DNA of 64,000 nt from Devosia sp. 67-54 (GTDB lineage Bacteria > Pseudomonadota > Alphaproteobacteria > Rhizobiales > Devosiaceae), in assembly GCF_001899075.1 (NCBI RefSeq), contig NZ_MKVA01000005.1:496001-560000 (forward strand), read 5' to 3'. Below, piece after piece: positions 5,521-56,716 of the stretch. A program made the position numbers and the translations under genes. Within the stretch, counting starts at the first letter, position 1. Each line of letters starts with the position of its first letter. The notes below the pieces were generated by a model that was not told the origin of the DNA, ran no database searches, and saw only the letters and a list, made by a program, of their open reading frames with translations.

Positions 5521-5751
5521 TTGTCTGCGCTCTGTCCGATCGGCCGCGAAGAGCGCCCGATCGTCCAACCGGCAGAGGTTTTGTTTGCGCTCTGGACGAT
5601 CGGTCGCAAGAGCGCCCGATCGTCCAACCGGCAGAGGTTTTTTGTCTGCGTTCTGTCCGATCGGTCGCAAGAGCGCCCGATCGTCCAACCGGTAGAGGTT
5701 TTGTTTGCGCTCTGGACGATCGGTCGCAAGAGCGCCCGATCGTCCAACCGC
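5521..5751. repeat. Array of four palindromic repeat units (about 60-base period)
   Basis: Four near-identical units start at about 5527, 5587, 5648 and 5707. Each has a GCGCTCTG lead, an arm TGKMCGATCGG, a spacer and the opposite arm CCGATCGTCCAACC. Units 2 and 4 have perfect 11-base arms (TGGACGATCGG); units 1 and 3 carry TGTCC in the left arm. A GAGGTTTTGTTT tract follows units 1-3. The array lies directly after the stop of the minus-strand lipoprotein gene and before the tRNA-Glu pair. The hairpins with T-tracts could terminate transcription. Open frames through it encode only repetitive peptides and are not genes. Confidence 0.9.
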
Positions 5752-5757
5752 TGTTGA

Positions 5758-6207
5758 TCAGCAGCCCGAGAACGTCACCGGATGATCCCAGCCGCGCGGG
5801 CGGCTGCGCACGTCGATATGGATGAAGCTGCGGCCCGGATAGCAGCCGAGGCCGCCGACCAGCGGGTTGCGGTAGGCGTAGGCAATGAGCCGCGACTTGT
5901 CGACGCCGGGGATGAAGATGTCGGCCGCCATGCACTTCATGTGATAGCTGGCGTCCTTGCCGCCGACGTCGGCATTGTGCCACGGGTCGCGATAGCCCGA
6001 ACTGACCACCACGCGCTTCCTGAAGAAGGTCTCGATGCTCCAGATGGCGAGCCTGAGGTTGGGCACGAGGCAGAAGGTGTTGACGCCCGAATTGGTGACG
6101 TAGGTGCCGAAGTTCTGCTGGTAGCCGGCGTAGGGATCGCGCGACGGCGAGAGTGAGCACGCGCCCAGTGTCGCCGCGCAGAGCAGCACCAAGAATAGCC
6201 GTCGCAT
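5758..6207 (-). CDS. Peptidase M15-like lipoprotein
   Basis: A 149-residue protein with a lipoprotein signal peptide (MRRLFLVLLCAATLGAC, lipobox LGAC). The body resembles the YcbK/M15A family, with SSGYRDPWHNADVGGKDASYH followed by MKCMAADIFIPG and later FIHIDVRS. The H-x6-D pair (HMKCMAAD) and the downstream HID provide the zinc ligands expected of LD- or DD-carboxypeptidases. It is likely membrane-anchored in the periplasm and acts on, or binds, peptidoglycan peptides. At about 125 mature residues it is a single-domain version. The stop codon abuts the palindromic repeat array, which may serve as its terminator. Confidence 0.8.
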   Translation of the reverse strand: MRRLFLVLLCAATLGACSLSPSRDPYAGYQQNFGTYVTNSGVNTFCLVPNLRLAIWSIETFFRKRVVVSSGYRDPWHNADVGGKDASYHMKCMAADIFIPGVDKSRLIAYAYRNPLVGGLGCYPGRSFIHIDVRSRPRGWDHPVTFSGC

Positions 6208-6310
6208 CCATTGCTCCGAGGATCGCTCCGTCCCCCGCGGGGGATCGAGTTCGGAACAATCCTAGGCAAACGCGGTGAAGCGGCTGCTAAGGCGCGTGGT
6301 TAGCGCGCCG

Positions 6311-7541: not shown

Positions 7542-8009
7542 ATGACAGTTTTCCGCCATTTGCGATCGGCCTGGTTCGCCGTTCGCCTGGCCATGACGCT
7601 CGTGCTGCTGAGCGCGGCGGCGGCCTGCAGCGCCGACAATCGGGGCGTGTTCCATACCGCCAAGGGCGATTTCGCCTTCACGCTCGAGATCGCCGACACC
7701 GAGGCGCAGCGCGAGCGCGGGCTGATGTTCCGCACCTCGCTCGCGCCCGATGCTGGAATGCTGTTCGACTATCATCAGGAGCAGCAGGCGGCGTTCTGGA
7801 TGCAGAACACGCTGATCCCGCTCGACATGATCTTCATCGCCGCCGACGGCACGGTGAAGACCATCCACGTCAACGCCCGGCCAATGGATCCGACCAGCAT
7901 TCCGTCGGAGGTGCCGGTGCGCTTCGTGGTGGAGATCGCGGGCGGCCGGTCGCAGGAGATCGGGCTCAAGGTCGGCGACAGGTTCGAGAATTCGCGGGTC
8001 GGAAAGTAG
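7542..8009 (+). CDS. DUF192 family exported protein
   Basis: A 155-residue protein. The N-terminus is a signal sequence (LAMTLVLLSAAAACSADN), possibly a lipoprotein signal because AAAC precedes the mature part. The body carries the DUF192 hallmarks: ERGLMFRTSLAPDAGMLFDY, FWMQNTLIPLDMIFI and GRSQEIGLKVGD. The biochemical role of the family is not established. It is probably co-transcribed with the cold-shock gene. A three-unit palindromic repeat array begins six bases after the stop. Confidence 0.85.
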   Translation: MTVFRHLRSAWFAVRLAMTLVLLSAAAACSADNRGVFHTAKGDFAFTLEIADTEAQRERGLMFRTSLAPDAGMLFDYHQEQQAAFWMQNTLIPLDMIFIAADGTVKTIHVNARPMDPTSIPSEVPVRFVVEIAGGRSQEIGLKVGDRFENSRVGK

Positions 8010-8015
8010 TTCCTT

Positions 8016-8170
8016 GCGCTCTGGCCGATCGCCCCTCAACAAGGGTCGTTCGGCCAACCAAGTTTTCTCTGCGCTCTGGCCAATCGACCCTTAAGAAGGG
8101 TCGTTCGGCCAACCAAGTTTTCTCTGCGCTCTGGCCAATCGACCCTTAAGAAGGGTCGTTCGGCCAACCG
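8016..8170. repeat. Array of three palindromic repeat units (55-base period)
   Basis: Units start at 8016, 8071 and 8126 with an exact 55-base period. Each has GCGCTCTGGCC, a hairpin (left arm TGGCCAATCGACCCTT, right arm GAAGGGTCGTTCGGCCA in units 2 and 3) and an AACCAAGTTTTCTCT tail. The lead GCGCTCTG and the trailing CCAACC are shared with the array near 5.6 kb, so they are subtypes of one family. The array fills the gap between two convergent genes, where it could act as a bidirectional terminator. Confidence 0.9.
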
Positions 8171-8181
8171 CTATGGGAGGA

Positions 8182-31252: not shown

Positions 31253-31253
31253 T

Positions 31254-43080: not shown

Positions 43081-43392
43081 TCATTCCCGCATTCCCAGCA
43101 CGCGCGTGCGGATGGTGGTCAGCGCCTCGTCGAGCGCGTCAAGCGCCATCTGGTGCGCGGCGTCCCGGTCGTAGGTTCCCGGCTCGAGGCCGGCGACGGC
43201 ATCGTCGAACACGGCCGCCGCGGCGTAGTCGCTCAGCGTGCGCCGCACCAGGTCGGCGCTTTCGGCTTCGCGCTCCTCGGGCGAGGTATGCACCAGATTG
43301 GTGCTGACGCTGAGCAGCAGCTTGAACAGCACGTCGTTCGCCATTGCCTGGCCGACATAGAGCGTTTCGACGCTCGGCCGATCCTCAGCCAT
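43081..43392 (-). CDS. Hypothetical phage protein on the opposite strand
   Basis: A 103-residue acidic, helical protein (LYVGQAMANDVLFKLLLSVSTNLVHTS, then EREAESADLVRRTLSDYAAAAVFDDAVAGLEPGTYDRDAAHQMALDALDEAL). It is transcribed against the surrounding early genes. No family recognised. A leftward gene here could be made in the lysogen. Confidence 0.55.
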   Translation of the reverse strand: MAEDRPSVETLYVGQAMANDVLFKLLLSVSTNLVHTSPEEREAESADLVRRTLSDYAAAAVFDDAVAGLEPGTYDRDAAHQMALDALDEALTTIRTRVLGMRE

Positions 43393-43567
43393 TCCTGTTC
43401 CCCTTTCCGAACCGGCGCACGTCCTCTTCCTGCGGCGCGCCGAGGCGGAGCGCCGCGCGAGTGTGGAGACCTCCCATGGCTCGCGCGGCGTCCCTTATCC
43501 GTCGTCGGGGACGTTCTCGCATGGCCGAATTGCGGCCGTCACTGCGTAAATTCGGGAGAGTTACGCC

Positions 43568-44041: not shown

Positions 44042-45900
44042 CGCCCGACCTGACCCGGCGCGCTGTCCGCGAGGAAATGGATGAGGCCGAACGCAAGGCT
44101 TGGGATGCGCTCGCTCGCTACAAATTCCAAATGTTCGGTTACTGGGCCGCAATCTGGGTGCACCTCAACCGGGTCGGTGGCTTCAAACGGCCAAACCCCT
44201 TTAAGAGCGCCGTTCTGCTCGCTCGCGGCTCGCGCGCGAGGGGCGCGTCTCCAACAGTGAGGATGATCGTGATGAGTGATCTATTGGGATTGGACAACGC
44301 TCTGGCCGATCGAGCGCGAGAGCACTCGCTCGGCCAACCGCCGCGTGGCGCCATGCCCGAAAGCGAGCTGCCGTTGACCTGGCCGGAGGCGGGCCCGAGG
44401 CCGCACCGTTTCGCCGGCATCTTCCGGATGCTGCAGGGCGAGGAGCGGCACGAGTTCGACGAGTCGATCCGCATCAAGGGCCTGCTCAACAAGATCGTGA
44501 TGTTCGAGGATGCGATCCTCGACGGGCGCAACCGCTACATCGCCCTGGTCGATGCCGGCATCGTCGATCCGGCGCTCGACTGGCGCGGCTACCCGGACCT
44601 GTTCACCGCGTTCGACGGCACCGCGCAGGAGGCGCTGGAGCGCGTCTGGATGCTCAACGAGCAGCGGCGCCACGACAGTGCCGGCGAGCGGGCCATGGCC
44701 GCGGCGCGCTACAAGAAATTCCTGGAGCAGGTGGCCGATCCCGCAAAATTGCGGAAATCGGACGCCGAATTGGCGGCCGAACATGGCGTGTCGGAGCGGC
44801 TGCTCAACTCGGCGAATGCCGTGCTGAAGAATGCCGAGCCCGACCTGGTGCAGGCCGTCGACGAGGGGCGCGTGTCGGTGACCGATGCCGCCGAGGCGGC
44901 CCGCCTGGCCAAGGAGCAGCAGGCCGAGATCGCTGCCGCGGCGGACCGCAAGGCGGCCAAGCGCAAGGTGCAGGCGGCCAAGGCACCGGACCTGCCGCCG
45001 CCGCTCAGCCGCACCGACCTGGCGCTGTTCAGCGAGGCGGTGTGCAACCTCGCGCATGAGGCGGCGAAGAAGCATGGCGGGGCAGGGGCCTCGATCTCGG
45101 CCGACAAGGTGCTGAAGTTCGCGCGCGATCTTGGCCTCATCCAGCAGAGCGGCGAGTTCGGCTTTACGCGCCCGATGCTGCTGGCGCTCAACAAGCTGCG
45201 CGACACCATGCCGGACAAGCCGGCGAAGGCGCCCAAGCGCGAGCCCGATCTGCTCGGGCCGACGGTACCGCCGCTCGGTGGCGAGTGGTCGCAGCAGATC
45301 GGTGGGTTGAGCGGCAGGGACACGGCATCGATCGCGGTCTTTCATGAGGAAGATGAAACGTTCTCGGTGTCGGTGCACTACAGCTTCGCCACGACGGGCG
45401 GAGGTGGACCGTTCGCCGGCAGTTACCCGGATTTTCATGCTGCCATCGCAGCAGCGGCCGGCGAGTTGCTGCATACACTGCGCGACATTCACGATCGGGA
45501 GGACAGCGTCACCTCCGACGTGACGCGACGCTCGGCCAAGGCGGGCGCCGACTGGCTCCAGCACAAGCTCGACGAATGGGGGATCGCGCTTCCCGATCCG
45601 GTGTCGGACGCGGTCGATGAGGTTCTCGACATCGTCGCCGGCGCGGTTGGGCTCCAGCTCGACTACGACGCGCTGGTGGCGGAGCAGGGCGAGCGCAAGG
45701 GCCATCACACCAAGGCGTCGGCGGAGCCGATCCTCAGGGCCGGGCGGGGCGCCGACATCGAGTGGCAGCGGATCGCCGACGATATCGGCCACCCGCTCGG
45801 GACCGTGCAGGGATGGTCGTTCAAGCTCGGCCTCACCGGCAAGGGTACGGGCCGGTCGGCGCCGCGCGGCCGCAAGAGCGAACAGCAGGCGGCAGCATGA
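44038..45900 (+). CDS. ParB-like phage protein with N-terminal extension
   Basis: A continuous 620-codon frame. Residues 1 to about 65 (EEMDEAERKAWDALARYKFQMFGYWAAIWVHLNRVGGFKRPNPFK) look like a small stand-alone phage protein. The part from ATG 44272 is ParB-like: FDESIRIKGLLNKIVMFEDAILDGRNRYIALVDAGI, then KLRKSDAELAAEHGVSERLLNSANAVLKNAEPDLVQAVDEGRVSVTDAAEAARL. The C-terminus reads GADIEWQRIADDIGHPLGTVQGWSFKLGL, GcrA-like in style. Either one fused gene or two genes in the same frame. A palindromic repeat lies at 44297-44340 inside it. Confidence 0.75.
   Translation: MTPDLTRRAVREEMDEAERKAWDALARYKFQMFGYWAAIWVHLNRVGGFKRPNPFKSAVLLARGSRARGASPTVRMIVMSDLLGLDNALADRAREHSLGQPPRGAMPESELPLTWPEAGPRPHRFAGIFRMLQGEERHEFDESIRIKGLLNKIVMFEDAILDGRNRYIALVDAGIVDPALDWRGYPDLFTAFDGTAQEALERVWMLNEQRRHDSAGERAMAAARYKKFLEQVADPAKLRKSDAELAAEHGVSERLLNSANAVLKNAEPDLVQAVDEGRVSVTDAAEAARLAKEQQAEIAAAADRKAAKRKVQAAKAPDLPPPLSRTDLALFSEAVCNLAHEAAKKHGGAGASISADKVLKFARDLGLIQQSGEFGFTRPMLLALNKLRDTMPDKPAKAPKREPDLLGPTVPPLGGEWSQQIGGLSGRDTASIAVFHEEDETFSVSVHYSFATTGGGGPFAGSYPDFHAAIAAAAGELLHTLRDIHDREDSVTSDVTRRSAKAGADWLQHKLDEWGIALPDPVSDAVDEVLDIVAGAVGLQLDYDALVAEQGERKGHHTKASAEPILRAGRGADIEWQRIADDIGHPLGTVQGWSFKLGLTGKGTGRSAPRGRKSEQQAAA
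44297..44340 (+). repeat. In-frame copy of the chromosomal palindromic repeat
   Basis: ACGCTCTGGCCGATCG ... CACTCGCTCGGCCAACCG repeats the lead GCTCTGG, the hairpin (TGGCCGATCGAGCG against CACTCGCTCGGCCA, 12 of 14 pairs) and the trailing CCAACC of the 5.6 and 8.0 kb arrays. Here it is translated as NALADRAREHSLGQPP within the ParB-like frame. It keeps the reading frame. Confidence 0.8.
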
Positions 45901-48038
45901 ACGCGATCCTGCCCGACAGCTTCCGGGAGTTTGCGGCGGCGCGCGGCGAGGCCGTGCCGGACGAGCTGATCGTCGACGGCTTCGCCGGCGGCGGCGGCGC
46001 GTCGGAAGGCATCGAGCAGGCGCTGGGCGACCTGATCGCGCAGGGGATGGATGTGCCCGAGCATGTGTCGATCGCCATCAATCACGACGATGCGGCGATC
46101 GCCATGCATCGGATCAACCATCCGCACACGCTGCACCTGCCGCACGACATCTGGCGGGTCAACGCGCTGCGCGTCACCAACGGCATCCGCGTCGGACTCG
46201 GCTGGTTCTCGCCCGATTGCCGGCATCATTCCAAGGCCAAGGGTGGCCGGCCGGTCAGCAAGTCGGTGCGCGACCTGCCTTGGGTGGTGGCGTACTGGGC
46301 CAAACAGGTGCGGCCGCGCATCCTGTTCCTCGAAAACGTCGAGGAAATGCGCGACTGGGGTCCGCTGCTGCGGATCGCCGAGGGCGTGTACAAGCCCGAC
46401 CCGGCACGCAAGGGGCAGACGTTCGACACCTGGCTCAACAAGTTCGTGCGCATGGGCTACCGCGTCGAGCTCAGGCAGCTGCGCGCCTGCGACTATGGCG
46501 TGCCGACGATCCGCAAGCGGCTCTACATCATCATGCGCTGCGACGGCGAGCCGATCGTCTGGCCCGAGCCGACGCATGGCGATCCGAAGTCCGAGGCCGT
46601 CGCGTCGGGCCGGCTGAAGCCGTGGCCGGTCGCGGCCGACATCATCGATTTCGACCTGCCATGTCCGTCGATCCTGATGACGCGCGACGAGGCGCGCGCC
46701 TACACCAAGGCCACGGGCATCCGGCTGGTCCGGCCGCTGGCGACGAACTCGGAAGCGAGGATTGCCAGGGGCTTCAAGCGCTATGCGCTCGATGCGGCCG
46801 AACCATTCGTTGTTCACCTGTCGCACGGTGACAGCGGCGGGCGGCGCAGCTTCGGCGGAGACGAGCCGCTGACGACGGTCGAAGCGACGGGCAACAAGCA
46901 CGCCGTGGTCGTTCCGCATGTGATGACGATGCGCAATGCCGAAAAGCCGTTCAACGGCGCCGACGAACCTGCCCATTCGGTGACAGCGGGCGGCGCGGGC
47001 CTGAGCCTTGTCGAAGGCGCGATCGTCCCGTTCGTGACGCATGGCCAGCATGGCGGGCGCTCACGCGAGGCGGGCGAGCCCATGCATACGGTGGAGGCCT
47101 CGCCCAAGAACACCGACCAGCTGGCGCAGGCCTTCCTGGTGCCGCGTTATGGCGAGCGGGTGGGGCAGCAGCCGCGCAGCCGCGCGATCGACGAGCCGAT
47201 GCCGACGACGGTCCCGACGGGCAATGGCGGCGATCTGGCTGTTGCCTATCTGGCGCAGCACAATGGCGACCCGCGCGCCGATGGACAGGACGGCGCACGG
47301 CCGGGCCGTCCGATGGACGAGCCGCTCCCGACCAGCACGACGCGCGGCACGCAGGCGCAGCAGGTGGTGGCCTATCTGGCGCAGAACAATACCGATGTCG
47401 TCGGCCATGATTTGCGCGAGAGCGTGTCGACCATCGTCGGCAAGGGCTCGACCCAGTCGCTGGCAGTGGCAATGTTGTCGCACGCCTATACCTCCAACAC
47501 CGCCGGCGGCGAGGGGGACCCTGGCAAGCCGATCAAGACGGTGCTGACAGGCAACCATGCGAACCTCGTCACCCTGCCACTGGTGACGGCCTACTACGGC
47601 AACGAGCAGAGCGCCGGGACGATCGACACTCCGCTGCGCACCGCATCGACCCGCGACCGCTTCGGCGTGGTGGAGGGCGCGGCGGCTACACCGCCGCTGA
47701 CCGAGGCGCAACTGGCGCGCGCCCGGCAGGTGGCGGCGTTCCTCAGGCAATATGGCTGCTGGGACGAGCGCGAGCTGGTCACCCTCGTCATCAGGGGCGT
47801 CACCTACATCGTCGTCGATATCGGCATGCGCATGCTGACGGCGCGCGAGCTGGCGCGGGCGCAGGGCTTCCCCGAGCGCTACGTGCTGGCGGCGCCCTAC
47901 GGCAAGGGCGTGCTGTCGGACACCGAGCAGCGGCACAAGATCGGCAACTCGGTCTGCCCCGGCGTGGCGCGGGCGCTGGTTGCCGCCAACTACCGGCCGC
48001 GGGCGGCGCGGTCGCAACCCACAGCGAGGGCGGCATGA
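45897..48038 (+). CDS. DNA (cytosine-5) methyltransferase with eight internal repeats
   Basis: A 713-residue C5 methyltransferase. Motif I is VDGFAGGGGASEGIEQAL, the catalytic Cys is in FSPDCRHHS (about residue 108), motif VI is ENVEE, motif VIII RKRLYIIMR, and motif X near the end is RHKIGNSVCPGVARALV. Between the motif-VIII part and the C-terminal motifs IX/X, residues about 304-595 form eight modules of 33-42 residues, each with an EPxxT-like turn (EPLTT, EPAHS, EPMHT, EPMPT, EPLPT and so on). It overlaps the preceding gene by ATGA. Confidence 0.88.
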   Translation: MNAILPDSFREFAAARGEAVPDELIVDGFAGGGGASEGIEQALGDLIAQGMDVPEHVSIAINHDDAAIAMHRINHPHTLHLPHDIWRVNALRVTNGIRVGLGWFSPDCRHHSKAKGGRPVSKSVRDLPWVVAYWAKQVRPRILFLENVEEMRDWGPLLRIAEGVYKPDPARKGQTFDTWLNKFVRMGYRVELRQLRACDYGVPTIRKRLYIIMRCDGEPIVWPEPTHGDPKSEAVASGRLKPWPVAADIIDFDLPCPSILMTRDEARAYTKATGIRLVRPLATNSEARIARGFKRYALDAAEPFVVHLSHGDSGGRRSFGGDEPLTTVEATGNKHAVVVPHVMTMRNAEKPFNGADEPAHSVTAGGAGLSLVEGAIVPFVTHGQHGGRSREAGEPMHTVEASPKNTDQLAQAFLVPRYGERVGQQPRSRAIDEPMPTTVPTGNGGDLAVAYLAQHNGDPRADGQDGARPGRPMDEPLPTSTTRGTQAQQVVAYLAQNNTDVVGHDLRESVSTIVGKGSTQSLAVAMLSHAYTSNTAGGEGDPGKPIKTVLTGNHANLVTLPLVTAYYGNEQSAGTIDTPLRTASTRDRFGVVEGAAATPPLTEAQLARARQVAAFLRQYGCWDERELVTLVIRGVTYIVVDIGMRMLTARELARAQGFPERYVLAAPYGKGVLSDTEQRHKIGNSVCPGVARALVAANYRPRAARSQPTARAA

Positions 48039-49210
48039 TGGACGAGCGCTATGTCAGGATCGACGGGACCCAGCTCAGCGAGGCGCTGCAGCTTTGCACC
48101 TACGTCGTCGAAAAGCGCAACACCTATCCGATCCTCGCGATGGTGAAGCTCGACTACCACGACGCGGTGCTGACGCTGACGGCGACCGATCTCGATATCG
48201 ACCTCAGCGTCGTCTGCGCGCCGATCGGGTGCGGCACGGCCGACTGGACGATCTGCCTGCCGGCGCATCCGCTCGCCAGCATCGCGCGCCTCGCCGGAAG
48301 CAACGGCGTGGTCATCCGGCCGAACCCGTCGGATGCGACCAAGGTGCAGGTGTCGCTCGACCAGGGCGACCTGTTCCAGGAGGTGTCGTACGATATCGAC
48401 GGCCTGGCGTCGGACAGCTTCCCCGACATCAGGGGCAAGCGCGGCGAGCTGATCGAGATCTTCGGCAATGGGCGCATGGCCGAGCTGCTGCGCCGCGTGT
48501 CCTGGGCCATGTCCACCGAGGAGACGAGGTATTACCTCAACGGCGTCGCCTGGCAGGTGGGTGGACCGCTGGGCCGGCGGCTCGCGGCGACGGATGGGCA
48601 CCGGCTGGCGCTCTGCTCCTACGACCCCATCGACACCGCGGGGCAACAGCTGACGCGCATCCTGCCCATCAAGCTGGTCGGCCTGCTCGAGCGCCTGCCC
48701 ATGCCCAACCTCAATGTGTTCGACGTGCTGTCGGACGCGCCCGGCCGCGCCGGTCTCAATGCGATCGAGATCGATGCCGGCAAGGTGACGATCCGCGCCA
48801 AGCTGGTCGAGGGCACCTATCCCGACATCGACCGGGTGATCCCGAAGCCGAGCAACCATGTCGCGCGCTTCGAGCTGCCGGCCGACCGGCTGGCTGGTGC
48901 CGTCGATCGCGCCTTGGTCCTGGCTGAAAGCACCAAGGGCGGCAAGATGATCAGCTTCAGCCGCGACGAGGCGACGGGCCTGATCGCGGTCGCCAACATG
49001 ACGCTGGACTATGGGGCGTCGAAGGTGGTGACGCCGTTCGCCTGGCCCGAGGGCGGCGTGACGTTCGGGGCGAACGGCCGGTATCTGCGCGACGTTCTGA
49101 AAAGCTGCGCCGGCAAGCTGCAGATCAAGCAGATCGATGCGGCGGCGCCGATCACCATCCTCGACGAGGACGGGACGATGGTGCGGCTGCTGATGCCGAT
49201 GAGGGTGTGA
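48035..49210 (+). CDS. Beta-clamp (DnaN-like) homologue of the phage
   Basis: A 391-residue sliding-clamp-like protein. The three domains are recognisable: VLTLTATDLDIDLSV; RRVSWAMSTEETRYYLNGVAWQVGG followed by LAATDGHRLALCSY; and a C-terminal TILDEDGTMVRLLMPMRV ending that resembles the usual DnaN (M/P)-rich tail. It would form a ring on DNA and tether polymerases or other partners. It is embedded between two methyltransferase genes and overlaps its upstream neighbour. No phage polymerase gene is visible. Confidence 0.85.
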   Translation: MMDERYVRIDGTQLSEALQLCTYVVEKRNTYPILAMVKLDYHDAVLTLTATDLDIDLSVVCAPIGCGTADWTICLPAHPLASIARLAGSNGVVIRPNPSDATKVQVSLDQGDLFQEVSYDIDGLASDSFPDIRGKRGELIEIFGNGRMAELLRRVSWAMSTEETRYYLNGVAWQVGGPLGRRLAATDGHRLALCSYDPIDTAGQQLTRILPIKLVGLLERLPMPNLNVFDVLSDAPGRAGLNAIEIDAGKVTIRAKLVEGTYPDIDRVIPKPSNHVARFELPADRLAGAVDRALVLAESTKGGKMISFSRDEATGLIAVANMTLDYGASKVVTPFAWPEGGVTFGANGRYLRDVLKSCAGKLQIKQIDAAAPITILDEDGTMVRLLMPMRV

Positions 49211-49213
49211 GCG

Positions 49214-49576
49214 ATGGGCAGTCGCAAACCAACCCTGGGCTTTGCCTCGCGCACCGACGCGGTGCTGGCGCTGCGCGAGCAAGGTATCACCGATCGCCGC
49301 GTCATCGCGGCGCGCATCGGCATCGACCCCAGCTGCGTCGCGGCGCTCGAGCGTTCGGCGCAGCGCCGGGGCACACCGCGGGCGCCGGGCTTTCGGCTGG
49401 AGCCGCTGGCGCACGACCCGCTGGCGAAGCTCTTGCCCGACGAAACGCTGACCGGCCTCCGCCGTGCGGCGGCGCCGCGCGGGGTGTCGGTGATGCAGCT
49501 GGTGGCGCGGCTGCTGTCGACCGTGGTCGAGGACGATCTGGTCGGCGCGATCCTGGATGAGGGGAGAGACGCATGA
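49214..49576 (+). CDS. Small helix-turn-helix-like phage protein
   Basis: A 120-residue protein. RTDAVLALREQGITDRRVIAARIGIDPSCVAALERSAQRRG looks like a helix-turn-helix, and the C-terminal helix (SVMQLVARLLSTVVEDDLVGAILDE) could dimerise. It lies three bases after the clamp gene and its stop overlaps the next start. Function unknown. Confidence 0.65.
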   Translation: MGSRKPTLGFASRTDAVLALREQGITDRRVIAARIGIDPSCVAALERSAQRRGTPRAPGFRLEPLAHDPLAKLLPDETLTGLRRAAAPRGVSVMQLVARLLSTVVEDDLVGAILDEGRDA

Positions 49577-52212
49577 ACCTGCCTCTCTCCTATCGCGATT
49601 TCCTCGACGCCAAGATGGTGTTCGCGCCGGTCGGCGGGTTCCATGTCGAGCTCGGCGAGATCAACCCGCTGCTGAAGCCGCACCAGAAGCTGATGGTGCA
49701 GTGGGCCTGCGCCGGCGGGCGGCGGGCGATCTTTGCCGCGTTCGGGCTGGGCAAGACCTTCATCCAGATCGAGCTGATGCGGCTGGTGCGGCAGCACCTC
49801 GGGCGCATTGCGGCGGTGCTGCTGGTGGCGCCGCTTGGCGTGCGGCAGGAGTTCCTGCAGGACGCTCGCACGCTGGCGACAGGCGAGCATCCCGACATCA
49901 CCGACGCGCAGCGCGCCGAGCTCGCGGCATGGCTCGACCTTCACCCGGAACGCGCACCGGTGCTGAGCTTCGTGCGGCGCAGCGACCAGGTGACCGGCGG
50001 CGGGCTCTACCTCGCCAACTACGAGAGCGTGCGCGACGGCCGGCTGGACGTGACGCTGTTCGCCGCGGCCTCGCTCGACGAGGCCTCGTGCCTGCGCGGC
50101 ATGGGCGGCACCAAGACGTTCCGCGAGTTCATGAAGCTGTTCGACGGCTTGGCGTACAAGTTCGTGGCCACGGCCACGCCGAGCCCGAACGAGTACATCG
50201 AGCTGCTGGCCTATTCGGCGTTCCTCGAGGTGATGGATGTCGGCCAGGCCAAGACGCGGTTCTTCAAACGCAACAGCGAAAAGGCCGACACGCTCACCAT
50301 CCACCCGCACAAGGAGCGCGAGTTCTGGCTGTGGGTGGCGAGCTGGGCGCTGTTCGTCGAGCGGCCGAGCGATCTCGGCTTTGACGACGAGGGCTACGAT
50401 TTGCCGGCGCTGCAGGTGCACTGGCACGAGCTGCCGAGCGACCACAGCGCGGCGGGCGAGGAAAAGAGCGGCCAGAAGCGGTTGCTCAAAAACGCCGCTG
50501 CGTCGCTGCCCGACGCCGCGCGCGAAAAGCGCGACAGCCTCGGCACCCGCATCGCCAAGCTGATGGAGCTGCGCGCGATAGATCCGGGGGCGCACCGGGT
50601 GATCTGGCACGACCTCGAGGCCGAGCGCCACGCCATTGCCGTCGCCATTCCCTCGGCCCGGTCGGTGTGGGGCAGCCAGGACCTCGACGAGCGCGAGCAG
50701 CGGCTCAACGATTTCGCCTATGGGCGGCTGCAGGAACTGAGCACCAAGCCGATCATTGCCGGGCAGGGGTGCAATTTCCAGCGCTACTGCGCCTGGGAAA
50801 TCTTCGTCGGCATCGGCTTCAAGTTCAACGACGTGATCCAGGCGGTGCACCGCTGCTATCGGTTCCTGCAGCGGCGGGAGGTGCGGATCGACTTCATCTA
50901 CACCGAGGCCGAGCGGCCGATCCGCGACCTGATCGAACGACGCTGGCGCCAGCACGACGAACAGCGCGCCATCATGACCGGCATCATCCGCGAGTTCGGC
51001 CTCAGCCAGGCGGCGATGGCCTCGACCCTGCGGCGCGGCATGGGCGTGGCCCGGATCGAGGCAGCGGGCGATGCGTACCGCGTGGTCAACAATGACTGCG
51101 TCGAGGAATGCCGCGCCATGGCGCCCGACAGCGTCGATTTGATCGTCACCTCGATCCCGTTTTCGACGCAGTACGAGTATTCGCCCAACTACGCCGATTT
51201 CGGCCACACCGACGACAATGCGCATTTCTTCGCGCAGATGGACTACCTGATCCCCGAGCTGCTGCGCGTGCTGAAGCCGGGGCGGATCGCCGCCATCCAC
51301 GTCAAGGACCGGATCGTGCCGGGCGGGCTCACCGGGCTCGGCTTCCAGACGCTCTATCCGTTCAGCGACGACACGGTGCGCGCCTTCGGCAAGCACGGCT
51401 TCGCCTACCTCAGCCGCAAGACCATCATCACCGACGTGGTGCGCGAGAACAACCAGACCTATCGGCTGGGCTGGACCGAGCAGTGCAAGGACGGCTCGCG
51501 CATGGGCAACGGCCTGCCGGAGTACCTGCTGGTGTTCCGCAAGCGGCCCTCGGACAATTCCAACGGTTACGCCGACGTGCCGGTGCGCAAGGCCAAGAAG
51601 CTCTATGAGGGCGACGACGGCTGGAGCAATCCCGAGGGCTACAGCCGCGGCCGCTGGCAGCTCGATGCACATGGCTTCATGCGGGTCAGCGGCAACCGGC
51701 TGCTGATGCCCGACGAGCTGCGCGGGCTCGACGCCAAGGTGATCTACAAGCTGTGGAAAGCCTTCAACGTGAGAAGCATCTACGATTTCGAGCATCACGT
51801 CAGCGTCGCCGAGGGGCTCGAGGCGGCATCGTCGCTGCCTTCGGACTTCATGCTGATCCCGCCGCACAGCTGGCATCCCGACGTGTGGAGCGATGTCGCC
51901 CGCATGCTCAGCATGAACACGCTGCAGGCGCAGGCCGGACGCGAGCAGCACCTCTGCCCGCTGCAGTTCGACATCATCGACCGCTGCCTGGTGCAGTACT
52001 CGATGCCCGGCGAGACGGTGCTCGACCCGTTCGGCGGGCTGATGTCGGTGCCCTATCGCGCCCTCAAGCATCGGCGGCGCGGCATCGGCATCGAGCTCAA
52101 CCCCGGCTACTTCGCCGACGGCCTCGCCTACGTCGAAGCGATGGCGCGCGACATGGCGGTGCCGGACCTGTTCGGGCTGCTGGAAACGGAGGAGGCCGAA
52201 GATGATGCCTGA
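49573..52212 (+). CDS. Superfamily 2 helicase fused to a DNA methyltransferase
   Basis: An 879-residue fusion. N-terminal SF2/SNF2-like helicase: motif I AAFGLGKTF (about 55-63), motif II SLDEAS (near 170), motif III ATATPSPNEY (near 200), and a C-terminal RecA lobe with motif VI-like IQAVHRCYRFLQ. The methyltransferase half (about 480-860) has TSIPFSTQYEYSPNY in place of a DPPY motif and VLDPFGGLMSVPYRAL as the SAM-binding motif, of the type seen in N4/N6 amino-methyltransferases. It probably methylates phage DNA. Its stop overlaps the next gene. Confidence 0.85.
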   Translation: MNLPLSYRDFLDAKMVFAPVGGFHVELGEINPLLKPHQKLMVQWACAGGRRAIFAAFGLGKTFIQIELMRLVRQHLGRIAAVLLVAPLGVRQEFLQDARTLATGEHPDITDAQRAELAAWLDLHPERAPVLSFVRRSDQVTGGGLYLANYESVRDGRLDVTLFAAASLDEASCLRGMGGTKTFREFMKLFDGLAYKFVATATPSPNEYIELLAYSAFLEVMDVGQAKTRFFKRNSEKADTLTIHPHKEREFWLWVASWALFVERPSDLGFDDEGYDLPALQVHWHELPSDHSAAGEEKSGQKRLLKNAAASLPDAAREKRDSLGTRIAKLMELRAIDPGAHRVIWHDLEAERHAIAVAIPSARSVWGSQDLDEREQRLNDFAYGRLQELSTKPIIAGQGCNFQRYCAWEIFVGIGFKFNDVIQAVHRCYRFLQRREVRIDFIYTEAERPIRDLIERRWRQHDEQRAIMTGIIREFGLSQAAMASTLRRGMGVARIEAAGDAYRVVNNDCVEECRAMAPDSVDLIVTSIPFSTQYEYSPNYADFGHTDDNAHFFAQMDYLIPELLRVLKPGRIAAIHVKDRIVPGGLTGLGFQTLYPFSDDTVRAFGKHGFAYLSRKTIITDVVRENNQTYRLGWTEQCKDGSRMGNGLPEYLLVFRKRPSDNSNGYADVPVRKAKKLYEGDDGWSNPEGYSRGRWQLDAHGFMRVSGNRLLMPDELRGLDAKVIYKLWKAFNVRSIYDFEHHVSVAEGLEAASSLPSDFMLIPPHSWHPDVWSDVARMLSMNTLQAQAGREQHLCPLQFDIIDRCLVQYSMPGETVLDPFGGLMSVPYRALKHRRRGIGIELNPGYFADGLAYVEAMARDMAVPDLFGLLETEEAEDDA

Positions 52213-53152
52213 AGCGAAGAGCACCGACGACAAACTGCTGCCATGCCCGTTCTGCGGCGAGCCGCCCCTGGTCGCCGGTGCGTCAATCTGGTGCGCTAAC
52301 GTCTCCTGTTGGGGGCCGCACGTGTCGCAGTTTGCGCACGTGGAGGATGCAATCGCCGCATGGAACCGCCGCTTGGTGGCGAGCGCCGGCGACCGCCCCG
52401 ACCCGACACCAGATGCGGCCTTCGACGCTTGGGTGGCTTCGTTGCCCAAGCAGAGCTGGGCGAAATATGACCTCTCGGCGTGCCGCTTGGGATGGGACGC
52501 CGCCCGCCGCGCCGCCCTCCCGACAGAGGCACCCGAGCTGGTGGCGCTCGTGTCGTTGGAATGGGAAAGCATCGACAACACAGCAATGTGGGCGAACGTC
52601 GTGCCGTTCTGGCTCCAGTATCGCATCACCCTGCGAGCCGATCGACAGAAGGTGCTCCGCTCGGAATGGCTGGGCAATCGCCGCGAGGACATTGGTATCT
52701 TCGCGGATTGGGATGCCGCAAAGGTCGCCGCTCAGACTGATTTTAACGAACGCCTCGCTGCGCTGCCTGTCTCGGGAGCTCCAGAGCAGACGATTGCCGA
52801 AGTCGCGCGAATTATTCTGTCGGTATCATCGGTCCCATACGACGACGCCAACGACGAACGCCGGGAAATGGCGCGGGCCGCAGCCGCCAAGGTCATCGCC
52901 GCACTCTGCCCAGCCACAGTATCTAGCGCCGAGCCGGTGGCGAAGATCGATGACCGCGCCGCCATTTCATCTGAGCAGGGCGAGGCGCCGGCGACGCCGG
53001 CCGATGTTCGCGAACTCGCCGACAGAGCGCGCAGGTTTGCACTCGGGCCAGCATTCGTAGAGCTCGGCTTCAATAAGACCATCTCGCTGGCTGCCGAGCA
53101 GGCCATCATGCTCGACCGTGCTGCCCGCTCCCGGAGGCCTGGAAATGGCTGA
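52202..53152 (+). CDS. Lar-like zinc-ribbon protein (possible restriction alleviation)
   Basis: A 316-residue protein. The N-terminus LPCPFCGEPPLVAGASIWCANVSCWGPHVSQFAHVEDAIAAWNRR is a Lar-type zinc ribbon (CPFC and later cysteines) found in phage restriction-alleviation proteins. The rest is an unrecognised helical region and could be a separate function. It overlaps the upstream fusion gene by eleven bases. Anti-restriction is inferred from family and context. Confidence 0.7.
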   Translation: MMPEAKSTDDKLLPCPFCGEPPLVAGASIWCANVSCWGPHVSQFAHVEDAIAAWNRRLVASAGDRPDPTPDAAFDAWVASLPKQSWAKYDLSACRLGWDAARRAALPTEAPELVALVSLEWESIDNTAMWANVVPFWLQYRITLRADRQKVLRSEWLGNRREDIGIFADWDAAKVAAQTDFNERLAALPVSGAPEQTIAEVARIILSVSSVPYDDANDERREMARAAAAKVIAALCPATVSSAEPVAKIDDRAAISSEQGEAPATPADVRELADRARRFALGPAFVELGFNKTISLAAEQAIMLDRAARSRRPGNG

Positions 53153-53411
53153 GCTGCGTGTCGAGAACCCGCGACTGACCGGCGACTTCGTCAAGCTGAT
53201 GGCCGATGCCGGCGTGACGCTGCCGGTGCGGCTGCACGAGACGGAGGTCGGCGAGATCGTCGACGCCAAGGGCCGCGAGGTGTGCGTGGTCGATGTGAAC
53301 CGCGAGCGGCCGGACGACGAGGTGGTGCATCTGTGCAGCTGGATCGTGGTGGCGATCAACACGTGCGGCGGATTTCAGGCAACCGGAGTTCCACGTGAAA
53401 CCACGTTCTAA
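53145..53411 (+). CDS. Small phage protein
   Basis: An 88-residue beta-rich protein (DFVKLMADAGVTLPVRLHETEVGEIVDAKGREVCVVDVNRERPDDEVVHLCSWIVVAINTCGG). ATG 53145 has GGAGG eight bases upstream and overlaps the end of the previous gene; 53118 is a less likely start. No family recognised. Confidence 0.6.
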   Translation: MAELRVENPRLTGDFVKLMADAGVTLPVRLHETEVGEIVDAKGREVCVVDVNRERPDDEVVHLCSWIVVAINTCGGFQATGVPRETTF

Positions 53412-53625
53412 AATAGAGCCGCGCCGGCACCTGGTGTATTCGCCGGAGTTTCGCGAGCGGCTGGAGGCGACGCGCGCCAAGGTGGCGGCGTCGCGCGAGC
53501 GGCTGCGGCTGCTCGACCGGCGCGACAGCCTGGCGACGCTGATCGAGGCGAAAACCCAGCAGATCGCCGCGCATGCGCGCGAGTTCGAGGAGATCGAGCG
53601 GCAGCTCGGGGAGGGTGTACAATGA
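53395..53625 (+). CDS. Small coiled-coil phage protein
   Basis: A 76-residue protein (SPEFRERLEATRAKVAASRERLRLLDRRDSLATLIEAKTQQIAAHAREFEEIERQLGEG), almost wholly helical with heptad pattern. It starts at GTG 53395 inside the previous gene's end and overlaps the next ATG. Function unknown. Confidence 0.6.
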   Translation: MKPRSKIEPRRHLVYSPEFRERLEATRAKVAASRERLRLLDRRDSLATLIEAKTQQIAAHAREFEEIERQLGEGVQ

Positions 53626-54149
53626 CTAGCGGCGCGGTCGCAGGGCAGGAACGCGGAGCCTGCACCTGTTTGGAAATCCAGGGTGAAGATCCGGCCTGCC
53701 CCCGGCATGGCAACAAGGCCGTTATACGCGAGCTATATCGCCTCTCCGCCAGAACTGAGAACGCTCGCGCGGCCTGGGTCTTGGCCGAGGCTGCGCAACT
53801 CATTGAAGAGCAGGCTGAGCGGGTCGATGTCGTATCGCTTAGTCCAGCCGCGCGTGATGTTCTCATGGAACGCAGCCGCCAGATCGCCGCTGAGGGCTGG
53901 ACGGCAGAGCACGATGACCAGCACGACGATGGGCAGCTTGCGAGGGCTGCGGCGGCCTACGCGATCTTCGCCGGCCTGCCAAGGCAATTCACGACGCTGG
54001 CGCAGTCCATGGGCCGCGCGATCCCGATGATCTGGCCGTGGGATGCAGGCTGGTGGAAGCCTTCCGAGCAGAACCGCCGCAACCTCGTCAAGGCCGGCGC
54101 GCTGATCTTGGCCGAACTCGAACGGCTGGACCGTCGAGGGCGGTCATGA
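53622..54149 (+). CDS. Conserved phage protein of the EGWTAEHDDQHDDGQL type
   Basis: A 175-residue protein. N-terminus has two Cys residues (GACTCLEIQGEDPACPRHG) possibly binding zinc. The C-terminal domain has RSRQIAAEGWTAEHDDQHDDGQLARAAAAYA and WPWDAGWWKPSEQNRRNLVKAGALILAELERLDRR, a signature common in Rhizobiales and other phages, without an assigned function. The acidic-His cluster suggests metal binding. It overlaps the MazG-like gene by ATGA. Confidence 0.75.
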   Translation: MTSGAVAGQERGACTCLEIQGEDPACPRHGNKAVIRELYRLSARTENARAAWVLAEAAQLIEEQAERVDVVSLSPAARDVLMERSRQIAAEGWTAEHDDQHDDGQLARAAAAYAIFAGLPRQFTTLAQSMGRAIPMIWPWDAGWWKPSEQNRRNLVKAGALILAELERLDRRGRS

Positions 54150-54694
54150 GCACACTGACTTTTGCGCAGCTGCGCCGCGCCAACCTGGCGCGGCAGGGCC
54201 CGGACGGGTGGAACCGGCCGCTGCATGGCTGGTCGCGCGACGACTGGGCGGTGGCCCTGGGCGGCGAACTGGGCGAGACGCTGAACGTCGTCAAGAAGCT
54301 CAACCGCGCGCGGGACGGGATGCCGGGCAACCATCGGTCGGCGGCGGAGCTGCTGGGCGATCTGGCGGAGGAACTGGCGGACACCGTGCTCTATCTCGAC
54401 CTGTTCATGGCGCGGGACGATGCGACGTTCGAGCAGCAGATCGGAGATCGGAGCTTCGTCGAGCTGCGCAATTTCACCGCAGCCTATCTCGATGATCGTT
54501 CGCCGTCGGCCATCGGCCGGGCGGCGATCCAGGCGCTGGCGCAGACAGTCGGCGCGGATCGCGGCGGGATACTGTTGCAACGGCTCGACGAGTTGGCCTT
54601 CGTCCACGATATCGACCTCGGCGCGGCCGTGGTCAGCAAGTTCAACTGGACCTCGGAAAAGCTCGGCTTTCCGCATCGGCTGGAGGCGGCATGA
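54146..54694 (+). CDS. MazG-like nucleotide pyrophosphohydrolase domain protein
   Basis: A 182-residue protein. The core helix pair LGGELGETLNVVKKLNR and LGDLAEELADTVLYLDLFMA has the EExxE/ExxD metal-binding pattern of MazG/dUTPase-type pyrophosphatases. It could hydrolyse a noncanonical NTP or ppGpp-like alarmone and adjust the nucleotide pool during infection. ATG 54146 overlaps the upstream stop. Confidence 0.8.
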   Translation: MSTLTFAQLRRANLARQGPDGWNRPLHGWSRDDWAVALGGELGETLNVVKKLNRARDGMPGNHRSAAELLGDLAEELADTVLYLDLFMARDDATFEQQIGDRSFVELRNFTAAYLDDRSPSAIGRAAIQALAQTVGADRGGILLQRLDELAFVHDIDLGAAVVSKFNWTSEKLGFPHRLEAA

Positions 54695-54909
54695 CCGGCG
54701 AGGTGCTGCAGTTTCACGCCGACCGGCTGCGCCGAATGCTGCGCGATCTGCAGCTCGACCCGGCGTCGCTGCTGCCGGCGCCGGACGGGGCGCTGGTCGA
54801 CGACATATCGCGGCGGCGGCTGACCCCGGCGCTCGACAACCAGACGCTGGCCGAGGGGCTGGTGAGCGCCGTCAAGATCGCCGCGAGCTATCTGGGAGAA
54901 GCGGGATGA
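54691..54909 (+). CDS. Small phage protein
   Basis: A 72-residue protein (TGEVLQFHADRLRRMLRDLQLDPASLLPAPDGALV, then DNQTLAEGLVSAVKIAASYLGEAG), two predicted helices. It overlaps both neighbours by ATGA-type junctions. No family recognised. Confidence 0.55.
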   Translation: MTGEVLQFHADRLRRMLRDLQLDPASLLPAPDGALVDDISRRRLTPALDNQTLAEGLVSAVKIAASYLGEAG

Positions 54910-55328
54910 TGTGGGATGAGCTGACCGAGGAGCAGAAGCTGCTCTGTGCGCCGCAGCGGCGCCTGCGGCTGCAGGAGCGGCGCACCTGCGACATGATCGA
55001 GGTCGACCATGTGTGGTCGCCGGCGACGGCGCAGGAGATCGTCGAGCCGCTGCTGGTGTCGATCGGCCGCTATCCCGACGGCCGCATCGGCGAGGTGTTC
55101 ATCGACGGGCGGGAAAAGGGCAAGGGCAAGGTGGCGCAGCGCACCACGGCGCTCAGGCAGGACGTGGCGGTGCTGATCTCGATCGCGCTGCAGTACGGCG
55201 CGCCGATCGAGGTGCTGCGCGATGCCATGGGGCGCGGCGAGGTGCAGGCGATGGGCCGGGTGCGGGTGATGCCGCACACCATCATCGGCAGTGTGCTCGA
55301 CGCGCTGGCGGCCGAGGCGGCGGCATGA
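54906..55328 (+). CDS. TSCPD-like domain protein (ribonucleotide reductase-associated type)
   Basis: A 140-residue protein. VSIGRYPDGRIGEVFIDGREKGKGKVAQRTTALRQDVAVLISIALQYGAPIEVLRDAMG resembles the TSCPD region at the C-terminus of class II ribonucleotide reductases. As a stand-alone protein next to a MazG-like gene it may modulate host nucleotide metabolism. The classical cysteine motif is not obvious, so the role is tentative. Confidence 0.65.
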   Translation: MMWDELTEEQKLLCAPQRRLRLQERRTCDMIEVDHVWSPATAQEIVEPLLVSIGRYPDGRIGEVFIDGREKGKGKVAQRTTALRQDVAVLISIALQYGAPIEVLRDAMGRGEVQAMGRVRVMPHTIIGSVLDALAAEAAA

Positions 55329-56716
55329 GCCTGTCGCCCGAACTTGCCGCCCTGCGCGACGAGGCGATGGCGACCAGCTGCGCGTCGTGGGCGATCCAGA
55401 AGCGGTGGGGTCTGCGCGGCCGGCACGAAATGGTGGGTGCCTGCCCGAACCCCGAGTGCGTCGGCGGCGGCGGCGTCGACCGGTTTTCGATCAACACGGT
55501 CAAGAACGTCTTCAACTGCCGCAAATGCGGGATCTCGGGCGAGGGCGTGATCAAGCTGGTGATGGACACCGAGCATGTCGATTTCGTGCGCGCCTGCGAG
55601 ATCGTGACCGGCCGCACGGTGAGCGAGCCGATCGACGAGGCGAAGGCGGAACGGGCGCGCCGGGAGCGCGCGGCCGAACTGGCGAGGCGCGAGCGCGCGG
55701 CGGAAGCCTATCGCGAGCGGGCGCGGCGCGACGGGCTCGCCACCTGGTCGGCCGGCTTGCCGCTCGAGGCGCCGGAGGCGCAGCCGGTGCTTGACTACCT
55801 GGCGCGGCGCGCGCTCGACATCCGCGGGCTGGAGCAGGCGCCGCTGTCGATGTTCCATGCGCTGCGGTGCGCGCCGGAGCTGGCCTGGACCGAGGCCTAT
55901 ATCAACCCGGAGACCGGCAACCGTGGCTGGAGCACGCTGCATGTGGGCCCGGCGATGCTGGCGCACATCGTGCTGCCGGTGCGGCTGCAGGCGGCGCCGC
56001 TCGATGCGCGGCTCGACCCGCTCGGCCGCTTCGGCGGCGTGCACATGACCTGGATCGACCTCGGGGCGCCGAAGGGACGGCTGGTGCTGCCCGACGCTCC
56101 GGCAGAGGGCAGGGAAGGCAAGGGCAAGCCGCGGCCGACCAAGAAGGTGCGCGGGCGCAAGAAGGGTTGCGTCATCCCGCTGTTCACCCCGGCCGGTGCG
56201 CGCCGGCTGGTGATGGGCGAGGGGATCGAGTCGACGCTGACGCCGCTGGTGCACGCGTTCGAGCCCGACACCGCGTACTGGGCTGGCATCGACCTCGGCA
56301 ACATCGCCGGCGCACCGATGGAGGTCGACGGCCGCAAGATCTGGGACGAGCCCGATCTCGACGATCTCGAATGCTTCATTCCGCCCGACTGGGTGGAGGA
56401 ATTCGTGCTCCTGGGCGAGGGCGACGATGCCAGCGTGCACAGCCGCGAAAAGAGCCTATGCGGGCTGCGGCGCGCCAAGCTGCTGCGCGAGCGCGCGCGG
56501 CTCGAGCGGGCGGAGCTGCCGGCGCTCACCGGCATCTATGTGCCGCCGCCCGACGGCGACAGCGACATGAACGATCTGGCCCGGCGCGAGCTGGGCGAGG
56601 GGAACGACGCGACTGACACCACCGCGGCGGCGGACGGGGGACCTCAGGCGGTTGGACGAGCGGATGCAATCGCGGCCGATCGGACAGAGCGCAGAGGCGA
56701 AGACGGGGCACGATGA
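55325..56716 (+). CDS. Phage primase-like protein with CHC2-type zinc finger and Toprim
   Basis: A 463-residue protein. A zinc-finger near the N-terminus uses C40 and C45 (CPNPEC), C65 and C68 (CRKC), followed by GVIKLVMDTEHVDF. The C-terminal Toprim region has MGEGIESTLTPL and later LLGEGDDASV. A basic linker (RARRERAAELARRERAAEAYRERARRD) lies between. It should synthesise primers for phage replication. The last about 22 residues are encoded by a palindromic repeat copy. Start ATG 55325; longer frames are not needed. Confidence 0.85.
   Translation: MSLSPELAALRDEAMATSCASWAIQKRWGLRGRHEMVGACPNPECVGGGGVDRFSINTVKNVFNCRKCGISGEGVIKLVMDTEHVDFVRACEIVTGRTVSEPIDEAKAERARRERAAELARRERAAEAYRERARRDGLATWSAGLPLEAPEAQPVLDYLARRALDIRGLEQAPLSMFHALRCAPELAWTEAYINPETGNRGWSTLHVGPAMLAHIVLPVRLQAAPLDARLDPLGRFGGVHMTWIDLGAPKGRLVLPDAPAEGREGKGKPRPTKKVRGRKKGCVIPLFTPAGARRLVMGEGIESTLTPLVHAFEPDTAYWAGIDLGNIAGAPMEVDGRKIWDEPDLDDLECFIPPDWVEEFVLLGEGDDASVHSREKSLCGLRRAKLLRERARLERAELPALTGIYVPPPDGDSDMNDLARRELGEGNDATDTTAAADGGPQAVGRADAIAADRTERRGEDGAR
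56649..56695 (-). repeat. Copy of the palindromic repeat inside the primase 3' end
   Basis: CGGTTGGACGAGCGG ... CCGATCGGACAGAGCGC is the reverse complement of units 1 and 3 of the 5.6 kb array, with about three mismatches between the arms. It contributes the residues AVGRADAIAADRTERR near the C-terminus of the primase, again without breaking the frame. Opposite orientation to the copy at 44.3 kb. Confidence 0.78.

What the first reader, a model, noticed from the sequence alone, without database searches (positions are those of the whole stretch)
5521..56695. Dispersed palindromic repeat family shared by chromosome and prophage
Four loci carry the same element: arrays at 5521-5751 (four units) and 8016-8170 (three units), and single copies at 44297-44340 and 56649-56695. 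All share a GCGCTCTG/GCTCTGG lead, a hairpin with arms around CGATCGG, and a CCAACC tail. Units in each array are near-identical, while the two arrays differ, which is how REP/RIME-like elements behave. Their presence in a recently acquired prophage suggests the family is still active in this genome, or that the phage carried it in. I know no named element of this sequence.
Basis: partly seen in the sequence, partly recalled or inferred. Interest (0 to 1): 0.75.

Follow-up and report, generated by a model that had tools for sequence, protein, structure and literature searches.

The report
Mobile hairpin repeat in bacterium and phage
A short hairpin-forming DNA repeat is scattered in about a hundred copies through this bacterial genome, mostly just after gene ends, and related copies have also spread inside a virus of these bacteria, where some have become extra stretches within the virus's own proteins.

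Summary
In detail: nine copies in the window, at the stated arrays and single sites. The family is far larger: 107 copies in 57 clusters of the host genome. Among 18 other genomes of the genus it is clear in three (48, 34 and 8 matches); 15 have none or one weak match. Named carriers are a Devosia nanyangense MAG and a Hyphomicrobiales MAG. It is a REP-like hairpin: base pairs covary, and copies hug stop codons (36 of 49 clusters within 15 nt; control mean 19.4, maximum 29). All 23 arrays are head-to-tail and look like local amplification. It lacks conserved GTAG or CGTC tags, and no Y1/RAYT transposase is found in 19 genus genomes. A syntenic prophage in G018 holds 16 copies, 14 of a longer form seen in 0 of 104 chromosomal copies here, but also in 0 of 3 copies of the window's own prophage. 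Three of the 16 are in-frame gains of 60-75 nt in phage replication genes. Most likely a non-autonomous, transposase-orphan REP-like element that has also colonised a temperate phage. What moves it is unknown.

The parts
5519..5752 (+). array of four head-to-tail units (periods 60, 61, 59); its CCAACCG end lies 5 nt from the stop of the minus-strand gene that ends at 5758
   Evidence: no lead-motif match in the orthologous loci of 18 of 18 same-genus genomes (a degenerate copy would be missed)
8008..8172 (+). array of three head-to-tail units (period 55) between the convergent genes 7542-8009 (+) and 8182-8877 (-)
   Evidence: in G018 the alignment anchors of the same two genes are 16 bp apart against 179 bp here
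44289..44342 (+). single prophage copy inside the open frame 44038-45900 (ParB-like), before its conserved domain; reads ALADRAREHSLGQP; the true start codon is uncertain, so it may be N-terminal coding or 5' leader
56647..56700 (-). single prophage copy in frame at the C-terminal end of the primase ORF 55325-56716; reads AVGRADAIAADRTER
55325..56716 (+). phage primase gene; its homologue in the G018 prophage has another copy, a 25-residue in-frame gain between TPA and GARR that is absent here
44038..45900 (+). phage ParB-like gene; its G018 homologue carries two copies in frame
49573..52212 (+). phage helicase/methyltransferase gene without a copy; its G018 homologue carries one in frame (22 extra residues net)
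41958..64000 (+). part of the prophage that carries copies (repressor, CII-like, ParB-like, methyltransferase, clamp, helicase, primase, D5 helicase, terminases); exact left end not determined; it continues past the window with a third copy at contig C5:569606-569659

Best explanation
A family of non-autonomous, REP-like mobile palindromes. The core unit (about 42 nt: GCTCTG, hairpin, CCAACCG, with a T-rich leader of about 12 nt) disperses as single copies. Once in place it is often amplified locally into head-to-tail arrays. Copies that survive are mostly those directly after stop codons, where a transcribed hairpin is tolerated, or those inserted in frame into proteins. Shown: copy number, hairpin with compensatory changes, placement, head-to-tail arrays, filled versus empty sites between species, one copy nested in another, and a longer subfamily expanded inside one phage lineage. 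Inferred: movement by an enzyme acting in trans, perhaps through single-stranded hairpin DNA; selection as the reason for the hugging of stop codons; any effect on the neighbouring mRNAs.
For: 107 copies in 57 clusters of the own genome; clear in only three other genomes of the genus. Base pairs: 87.1% of cells paired against 80.3% shuffled, 113 cells with changes on both sides against 50, pair 28-35 G-C 45 and C-G 42. Four copies fold with z -3.1 to -5.0 as single-stranded DNA. 36 of 49 clusters at unidirectional or convergent sites lie within 15 nt of an upstream stop, control maximum 29 in 5000 placements. Clusters at convergent and divergent sites number 19 and 4; gaps without a copy number 40 and 56. 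23 arrays, none of mixed orientation. One site has three units here and one in G018. Empty sites: both window arrays; 13 empty copies of another palindromic repeat in G004 against three copies of it with the element in the hairpin loop. One copy nested in another's loop. In-frame gains of 75, 66 and 60 nt in phage genes.
Against: No mobilising enzyme found. No constant target duplication: 1 of 34 single copies has a 14-bp flanking direct repeat, two more have 10-11 bp. Some sites are shared between species, so many copies are old. Nearly invariant lead and tail could also mean a selected binding site. The extended phage form does not fold better than shuffled sequence (z 0.18 and 1.46), and one window unit folds only slightly better (z -1.15). 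The 90 rows of the covariation test include sister units of the same array, so they are not independent.
Confidence: 0.72

Rival explanations
1. A classical REP family mobilised by a RAYT (TnpA-REP) transposase of the IS200/IS605 superfamily, now or until recently.
For: Similar size, hairpin, placement after stops and occasional copies inside genes as REPs. Orientation is non-random along contigs, as single-strand insertion at replication forks could give.
Against: No PF01797 match in 19 of 19 genomes of the genus, while 5 of 14 control genomes ring. No conserved GTAG or CGTC end tag (CGTC in 2 of 90 left ends and 1 of 90 right ends, GTAG in 1 and 0). Arrays are head-to-tail only, whereas head-to-tail dimers are described as absent, under-represented or negligible in GTAG and CGTC families (PMC3733652, passages).
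Confidence: 0.1
2. A functional site under selection and not a mobile element: for example an mRNA 3' stabiliser, a transcription or translation brake, or a binding site of a nucleoid or phage protein.
For: Covariation and nearly fixed lead and tail; within 15 nt of stops in most clusters; REPs within 15 nt of a stop are reported to stall ribosomes in E. coli (PMC12306157, passages, citing an earlier study).
Against: None or one weak match in 15 of 18 sister genomes; a terminator scan finds nothing at 5401-8300; copies inside phage proteins do not fit such a role.
Confidence: 0.15
3. The phage is the source: the element is a phage element that spilled over into chromosomes.
For: 16 copies in about 32 kb of the G018 prophage, 14 with their own long flanks; three copies in the own prophage; one long-form copy on another, 4.5-kb G018 contig.
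Against: G004 has 48 matches and G006 has 8, but neither has a primase match of this phage. The chromosomal form lacks the phage flanks (0 of 104), and so do the three copies of the own prophage (0 of 3). Chromosomal copies outnumber phage copies in the own genome 104 to 3.
Confidence: 0.12
4. A polar chromosome motif read by the replication or segregation machinery (KOPS- or chi-like, names recalled).
For: Orientation differs between contigs (C5 13:0, C3 0:7; permutation p 5e-5) and follows local, gene-strand-adjusted GC skew (per-locus p 2.6e-4).
Against: Twenty independent 10-kb samples give no consistent skew per contig except C2; copies are few and clumped; most sister genomes lack the motif.
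Confidence: 0.04

Closest known systems
CGTC-tagged REPs (Di Nocera et al. 2013, PMC3733652), including Rickettsia RPE-4 and RPE-6
   Same: small hairpins, mainly alpha-Proteobacteria, no dedicated transposase, placed close to ORF 3' ends, some inside replication and repair genes (passages and section 15 read)
   Different: no conserved CGTC tag, longer stem, GCTCTG lead and CCAACC tail, head-to-tail arrays only, a copy-rich phage
GTAG REPs, BIMEs and REPINs with RAYT transposases (PMC3116915, passages)
   Same: palindrome, high copy number, 3' UTR placement; tandem amplification of whole units occurs there too
   Different: no GTAG tag, no RAYT found in the genus, no inverted doublets among 23 arrays
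Rickettsia palindromic elements RPE-1 (reviewed in PMC10969869, passages)
   Same: in-frame insertion of a palindrome into unrelated protein genes
   Different: gains of 60-75 nt here against about 150 bp; the intragenic copies found here are in phage genes, while 53 of 54 chromosomal clusters lie between predicted genes
RIME of rhizobia and CIR of Caulobacter (names recalled; RIME only in a search listing; CIR in an abbreviation and reference list)
   Same: intergenic palindromic repeats in alpha-Proteobacteria; here too the unit sits inside other palindromic repeats in some G004 and G018 copies
   Different: sequences not compared here

Membership tests
GTAG REP / RAYT system | unpaired GTAG tetranucleotide at one end of the hairpin | tested here: not met
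   90-copy alignment shows GCGCTCTG on one side and AACCGC on the other; GTAG in 1 of 90 left ends and 0 of 90 right ends
GTAG REP / RAYT system | Y1 (IS200/IS605-type) transposase in the genome | tested here: not met
   0 of 19 genomes of the genus with PF01797
CGTC REP | CGTC (or TGTC, CCTC) tag, 8-9 bp stem beginning with AT pairs, loop 4-5, CCA tail | tested here: not met
   CGTC in 2 of 90 left and 1 of 90 right ends; main stem of 14 pairs with a mismatch, starting T-A, G-C; the tail does contain CCAACC (definition). CGTC occurs inside the stem of some copies
CGTC REP | no dedicated transposase | tested here: met
   no PF01797; 32 of 33 left-half matches belong to copies listed, the other looks like a truncated half, so no long autonomous version with this left half was found
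REP-like elements in general | short palindrome, many copies, preferentially downstream of genes | tested here: met
BIME / REPIN | units paired in inverted orientation | tested here: not met
   0 of 23 arrays of mixed orientation
Rickettsia palindromic element | in-frame insertion in protein genes | tested here: met
   3 cases with net gains of 60, 66 and 75 nt and 4 further copies in predicted ORFs among 16 copies of the G018 prophage; primase C-terminus in the window
MITE | terminal inverted repeats plus target duplication of fixed length | tested here: not met
   no constant flanking direct repeat in 34 single copies: one of 14 bp, one of 11, one of 10, the rest within the control range
intrinsic terminator | G+C-rich hairpin followed by a T run | tested here: not met
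   0 found at 5401-8300 on either strand, which holds the two window arrays; other copies not scanned
RIME (rhizobia) | sequence similarity to the described RIME units | not tested
   the RIME sequence was not retrieved

The most novel reading that the evidence does not exclude
A REP-like selfish palindrome has split into a chromosomal lineage and a phage-adapted lineage. The phage lineage, with its own CCCC/GGGG-flanked form, spreads inside a temperate phage genome, enters replication genes in frame and survives as protein segments, and the phage carries it between Devosia species. It is mobilised by a still unknown enzyme that is neither a RAYT nor any other Y1 transposase.
Probability: 0.33. 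Interest if true: 0.68.

Novelty: new variant of a known kind. Interest (0 to 1): 0.52.

Why it matters
How REPs without a dedicated transposase move is an open question stated in print (PMC3733652, passages). This family is nearly confined to a few related species, with filled and empty sites, a nested copy, local array growth and a phage-resident subfamily, so the question becomes testable in a small clade. It also shows a hairpin repeat adding in-frame segments to phage replication proteins.

Tried and rejected
RAYT/IS200 linkage: no match. A longer autonomous copy: the left-half search gave 33 places, 32 of them copies (compared by eye) and one apparent truncated half; a version with a diverged left half would be missed. 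Target duplication: no constant length (34 single copies, three of them prophage, against all mispaired flanks). Insertion into hairpin loops as a general rule: seen in several G004 copies (7 of 20 against 13.7% of mispaired controls, 1 of 7 in G018 against 2.4%), weak in the own genome (6 of 54 against 5%). A first version with other flank trimming gave 3 of 54 against 1.7%, 0 of 7 and 2 of 20 against 3.7%. Replication-strand polarity: significant with skew measured at the element loci, not confirmed by independent samples. Terminator role: negative for the two window arrays. Rfam at gathering thresholds: only four tRNAs in the window. Phage relatives in IMG/VR: by primase one contig 100% identical over the match and one distant relative, none by the ParB-like protein, three matches of 100% by terminase. 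Phage records: terminase relatives only below 60% identity. DNA folding of the long phage form: not better than shuffles. Long form as the mark of the whole phage lineage: not met in the own prophage, 0 of 3 copies. Literature: 17 papers hold both 'Devosia' and 'palindromic', 12 were listed, none recognised as describing a Devosia repeat family (listing only); no paper on phage-borne REP subfamilies recognised in the 12 listed of 180 and 12 listed of 29.

Limits. Genes were called with a codon-usage script of my own trained on the window and fetched loci, not with a published gene finder; stops are exact, starts are not. Whole-genome model searches scored 150 of 4,487 to 9,984 candidates per genome, so counts are lower bounds. 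An early alignment (A2) mixed strands and was discarded; the model was built from A3.
Full report
Observation. The window holds nine copies of one unit: four in tandem at 5519-5752, three in tandem at 8008-8172, one at 44289-44342 and one on the minus strand at 56647-56700. A degenerate pattern (lead, hairpin start, tail) finds eight of the nine and none in 100 shuffles.

Size of the family. A similar pattern finds 43 places in the host genome (4.21 Mb, 12 contigs) and none when read backwards. A covariance model built from 28 aligned copies finds 110 matches at E<=0.01 (150 of 8,163 candidates were scored). Rescanned on fetched loci it gives 122 rows, of which I dropped 14 reverse-strand echoes of the palindrome and one weak gapped match: 107 copies in 57 clusters, 34 single and 23 arrays. 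Of these copies 104 are chromosomal and three lie in the prophage, two in the window and one at contig C5:569606.

Distribution. Among 19 genomes of the genus, matches at E<=1e-4 number 101 (own), 48 (G004), 34 (G018), 8 (G006), one weak match each in G012 and G002, and none in 13 others. A strict pattern in 61 genomes (own and relatives) hits own, G004, G018 and one short isolated match in another family of the order. A stricter pattern in the collection of 84,980 species hits ten stretches, nine of a Devosia nanyangense MAG and one of a Hyphomicrobiales MAG (the own genome may be left out there). The host is therefore Devosia-like; its name was not given. In IMG/VR two stretches match; both are 100% identical to this genome's own prophage over the part compared.

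Anatomy. On 90 distinct ungapped copies from own, G018 and G004 the structure has 87.1% paired cells (shuffled mean 80.3%), ten pairs with changes on both sides (shuffled mean 6.8), 113 such cells against 50, and a covariation score of 0.200 against 0.099, which none of 500 shuffles reaches; sliding the partner by one to three columns lowers it to 0.018-0.072. Sister units of one array are among the rows, so they are not independent. The apical stem alternates G-C/C-G (45/42) and G-C/A-T (49/34). Positions 17-46 and 22-41 are unpaired in about half of the copies (42 and 47 of 90). Lead and tail are nearly invariant. A T-rich leader precedes the lead; array periods are mostly 53-64 nt (two of 46, one of 96), that is leader plus core. 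Four copies fold as single-stranded DNA with z -3.1 to -5.0; a fifth, the first unit of the first array, only with z -1.15.

Placement. Genes were called with a codon-usage script. Of 54 chromosomal clusters 53 lie between two predicted genes: 30 between genes in the same direction, 19 between convergent and 4 between divergent genes; gaps without a copy number 167, 40 and 56. One (L136:7454) falls inside a predicted ORF. Of the 49 unidirectional or convergent clusters 36 are within 15 nt of an upstream stop, median 5 nt; uniform placement within the same gaps gives 19.4 on average and at most 29 in 5000 trials. In eight clusters the matched stretch overlaps a neighbouring gene end by 1-13 nt. 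Only 2 of 30 unidirectional clusters lie within 15 nt of the downstream start. This is the published pattern of REPs (PMC3733652 section 15), and REPs within 15 nt of a stop are reported to affect translation in E. coli (PMC12306157 passages, citing an earlier study).

Arrays. All 23 arrays have one orientation. In 13 of the 16 arrays of three or more units the period varies by at most 2 nt. Units are more alike within arrays (0.929, 65 pairs) than between (0.797, 1420 pairs). At one site G018 has one unit where this genome has three. Local amplification of a founder is the simplest reading. [quoted passage not shown]

Empty and shared sites. No lead motif is present at either window array in the orthologous loci of 18 of 18 same-genus genomes (some of these loci are shortened by contig ends, and a degenerate copy would be missed). 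In G018 the alignment anchors around the second array are 16 bp apart against 179 bp here. In contrast, own copies L103:15895 and L118:3004 sit at the same sites as copies in G018 and G004. In G004 another palindromic repeat exists in 13 empty copies, and three copies of it carry the element in the hairpin loop. In the G018 prophage one copy is nested in the loop of another. So the family has old shared copies and younger, species-specific ones.

Prophage. The window prophage has a repressor, a CII-like activator, ParB-like protein, C5 methyltransferase, clamp, helicase/methyltransferase, primase, D5 helicase and terminases. IMG/VR contigs match stretches of it at 100%. G018 has a syntenic prophage, about 73% identical over the longest block, with 16 copies in about 32 kb at E<=6e-4 (one weaker match and one reverse echo were not used). 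Eight of the G018 copies in the capped list lie in this stretch of under 1% of the genome.

Phage subfamily and in-frame copies. Of the 16 copies 14 have both a CCCC block before the lead and a GGGG block after the tail. This holds for 0 of 104 chromosomal copies of this genome, 1 of 9 on other G018 contigs examined (a 4.5-kb contig), 0 of 21 from G004, and also 0 of 3 copies of the window's own prophage. The long form is thus a mark of the G018 phage and not yet of the whole phage lineage. Seven of the 16 lie in predicted ORFs. Against the window phage three are in-frame gains: primase 75 nt net (25 residues between TPA and GARR), helicase/methyltransferase 66 nt, first ParB-like copy 60 nt. 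The second ParB-like copy and the D5 copy lie in poorly aligned linkers; two further ORFs were not compared. In the window phage one copy is the C-terminal tail of the primase; the other precedes the conserved part of the ParB-like protein and may be leader. The third, outside the window, is flanked by a 14-bp direct repeat.

Mechanism. A resident Y1 transposase was not found: none in 19 genomes, with 5 of 14 control genomes positive. There is no constant target duplication and no long version with the left half. Orientation is uneven between contigs (C5 13:0, C3 0:7, permutation p 5e-5) and follows gene-strand-adjusted GC skew at the loci (per-locus p 2.6e-4). Twenty independent samples did not give a consistent skew per contig, C2 apart, so strand-specific insertion at replication forks remains a hint. 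I conclude, as inference, that an unknown trans-acting activity spreads single copies, that slippage or unequal exchange makes arrays, and that selection leaves copies after stops and in protein segments that can bear them.

Verdict. A new untagged, transposase-orphan REP-like family, nearly restricted to a small Devosia clade, with a subfamily expanded in a phage. The kind is known; the combination of head-to-tail arrays only, no Y1 enzyme found in the genus and a phage colonised in frame was not met in the listings and passages seen here.

Noticed in passing
G004 loci L148-L161 and L196-L205; G018 loci L068, L069, L072, L074; own locus L113:1000-1200: Further dispersed palindromic repeats (CACCGGCTTCGCCGGTCCCCCTC type, 13 places in G004, and C-rich CCCCTCACCCG / CCCTCTCCCC types) lie around some copies of the element and form mosaics with it.
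   Followed up: partly
window 41958-64000; IMGVR_UViG_3300003486_000217, 3300003487_000038, 3300003407_000044: IMG/VR contigs from three metagenome sets match stretches of this prophage or its terminase at 100%, so phage or lysogen was sampled there.
   Followed up: partly
window 49573-52212: A phage protein that matches both DNA helicase families and an N4/N6 DNA methyltransferase domain in one chain.
   Followed up: no
window 55645-55705: A 27-bp tandem repeat (2.3 copies) inside the phage primase gene.
   Followed up: no
G000:C5:569560-569720 (window coordinate about 73560-73720): Prophage copy flanked by a perfect 14-bp direct repeat; the only one that long among 34 single copies.
   Followed up: partly
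contigs C5 and C3 of the own genome: Element orientation is one-sided over whole contigs (13:0 and 0:7 chromosomal clusters) and tracks local GC skew; cause unresolved.
   Followed up: partly
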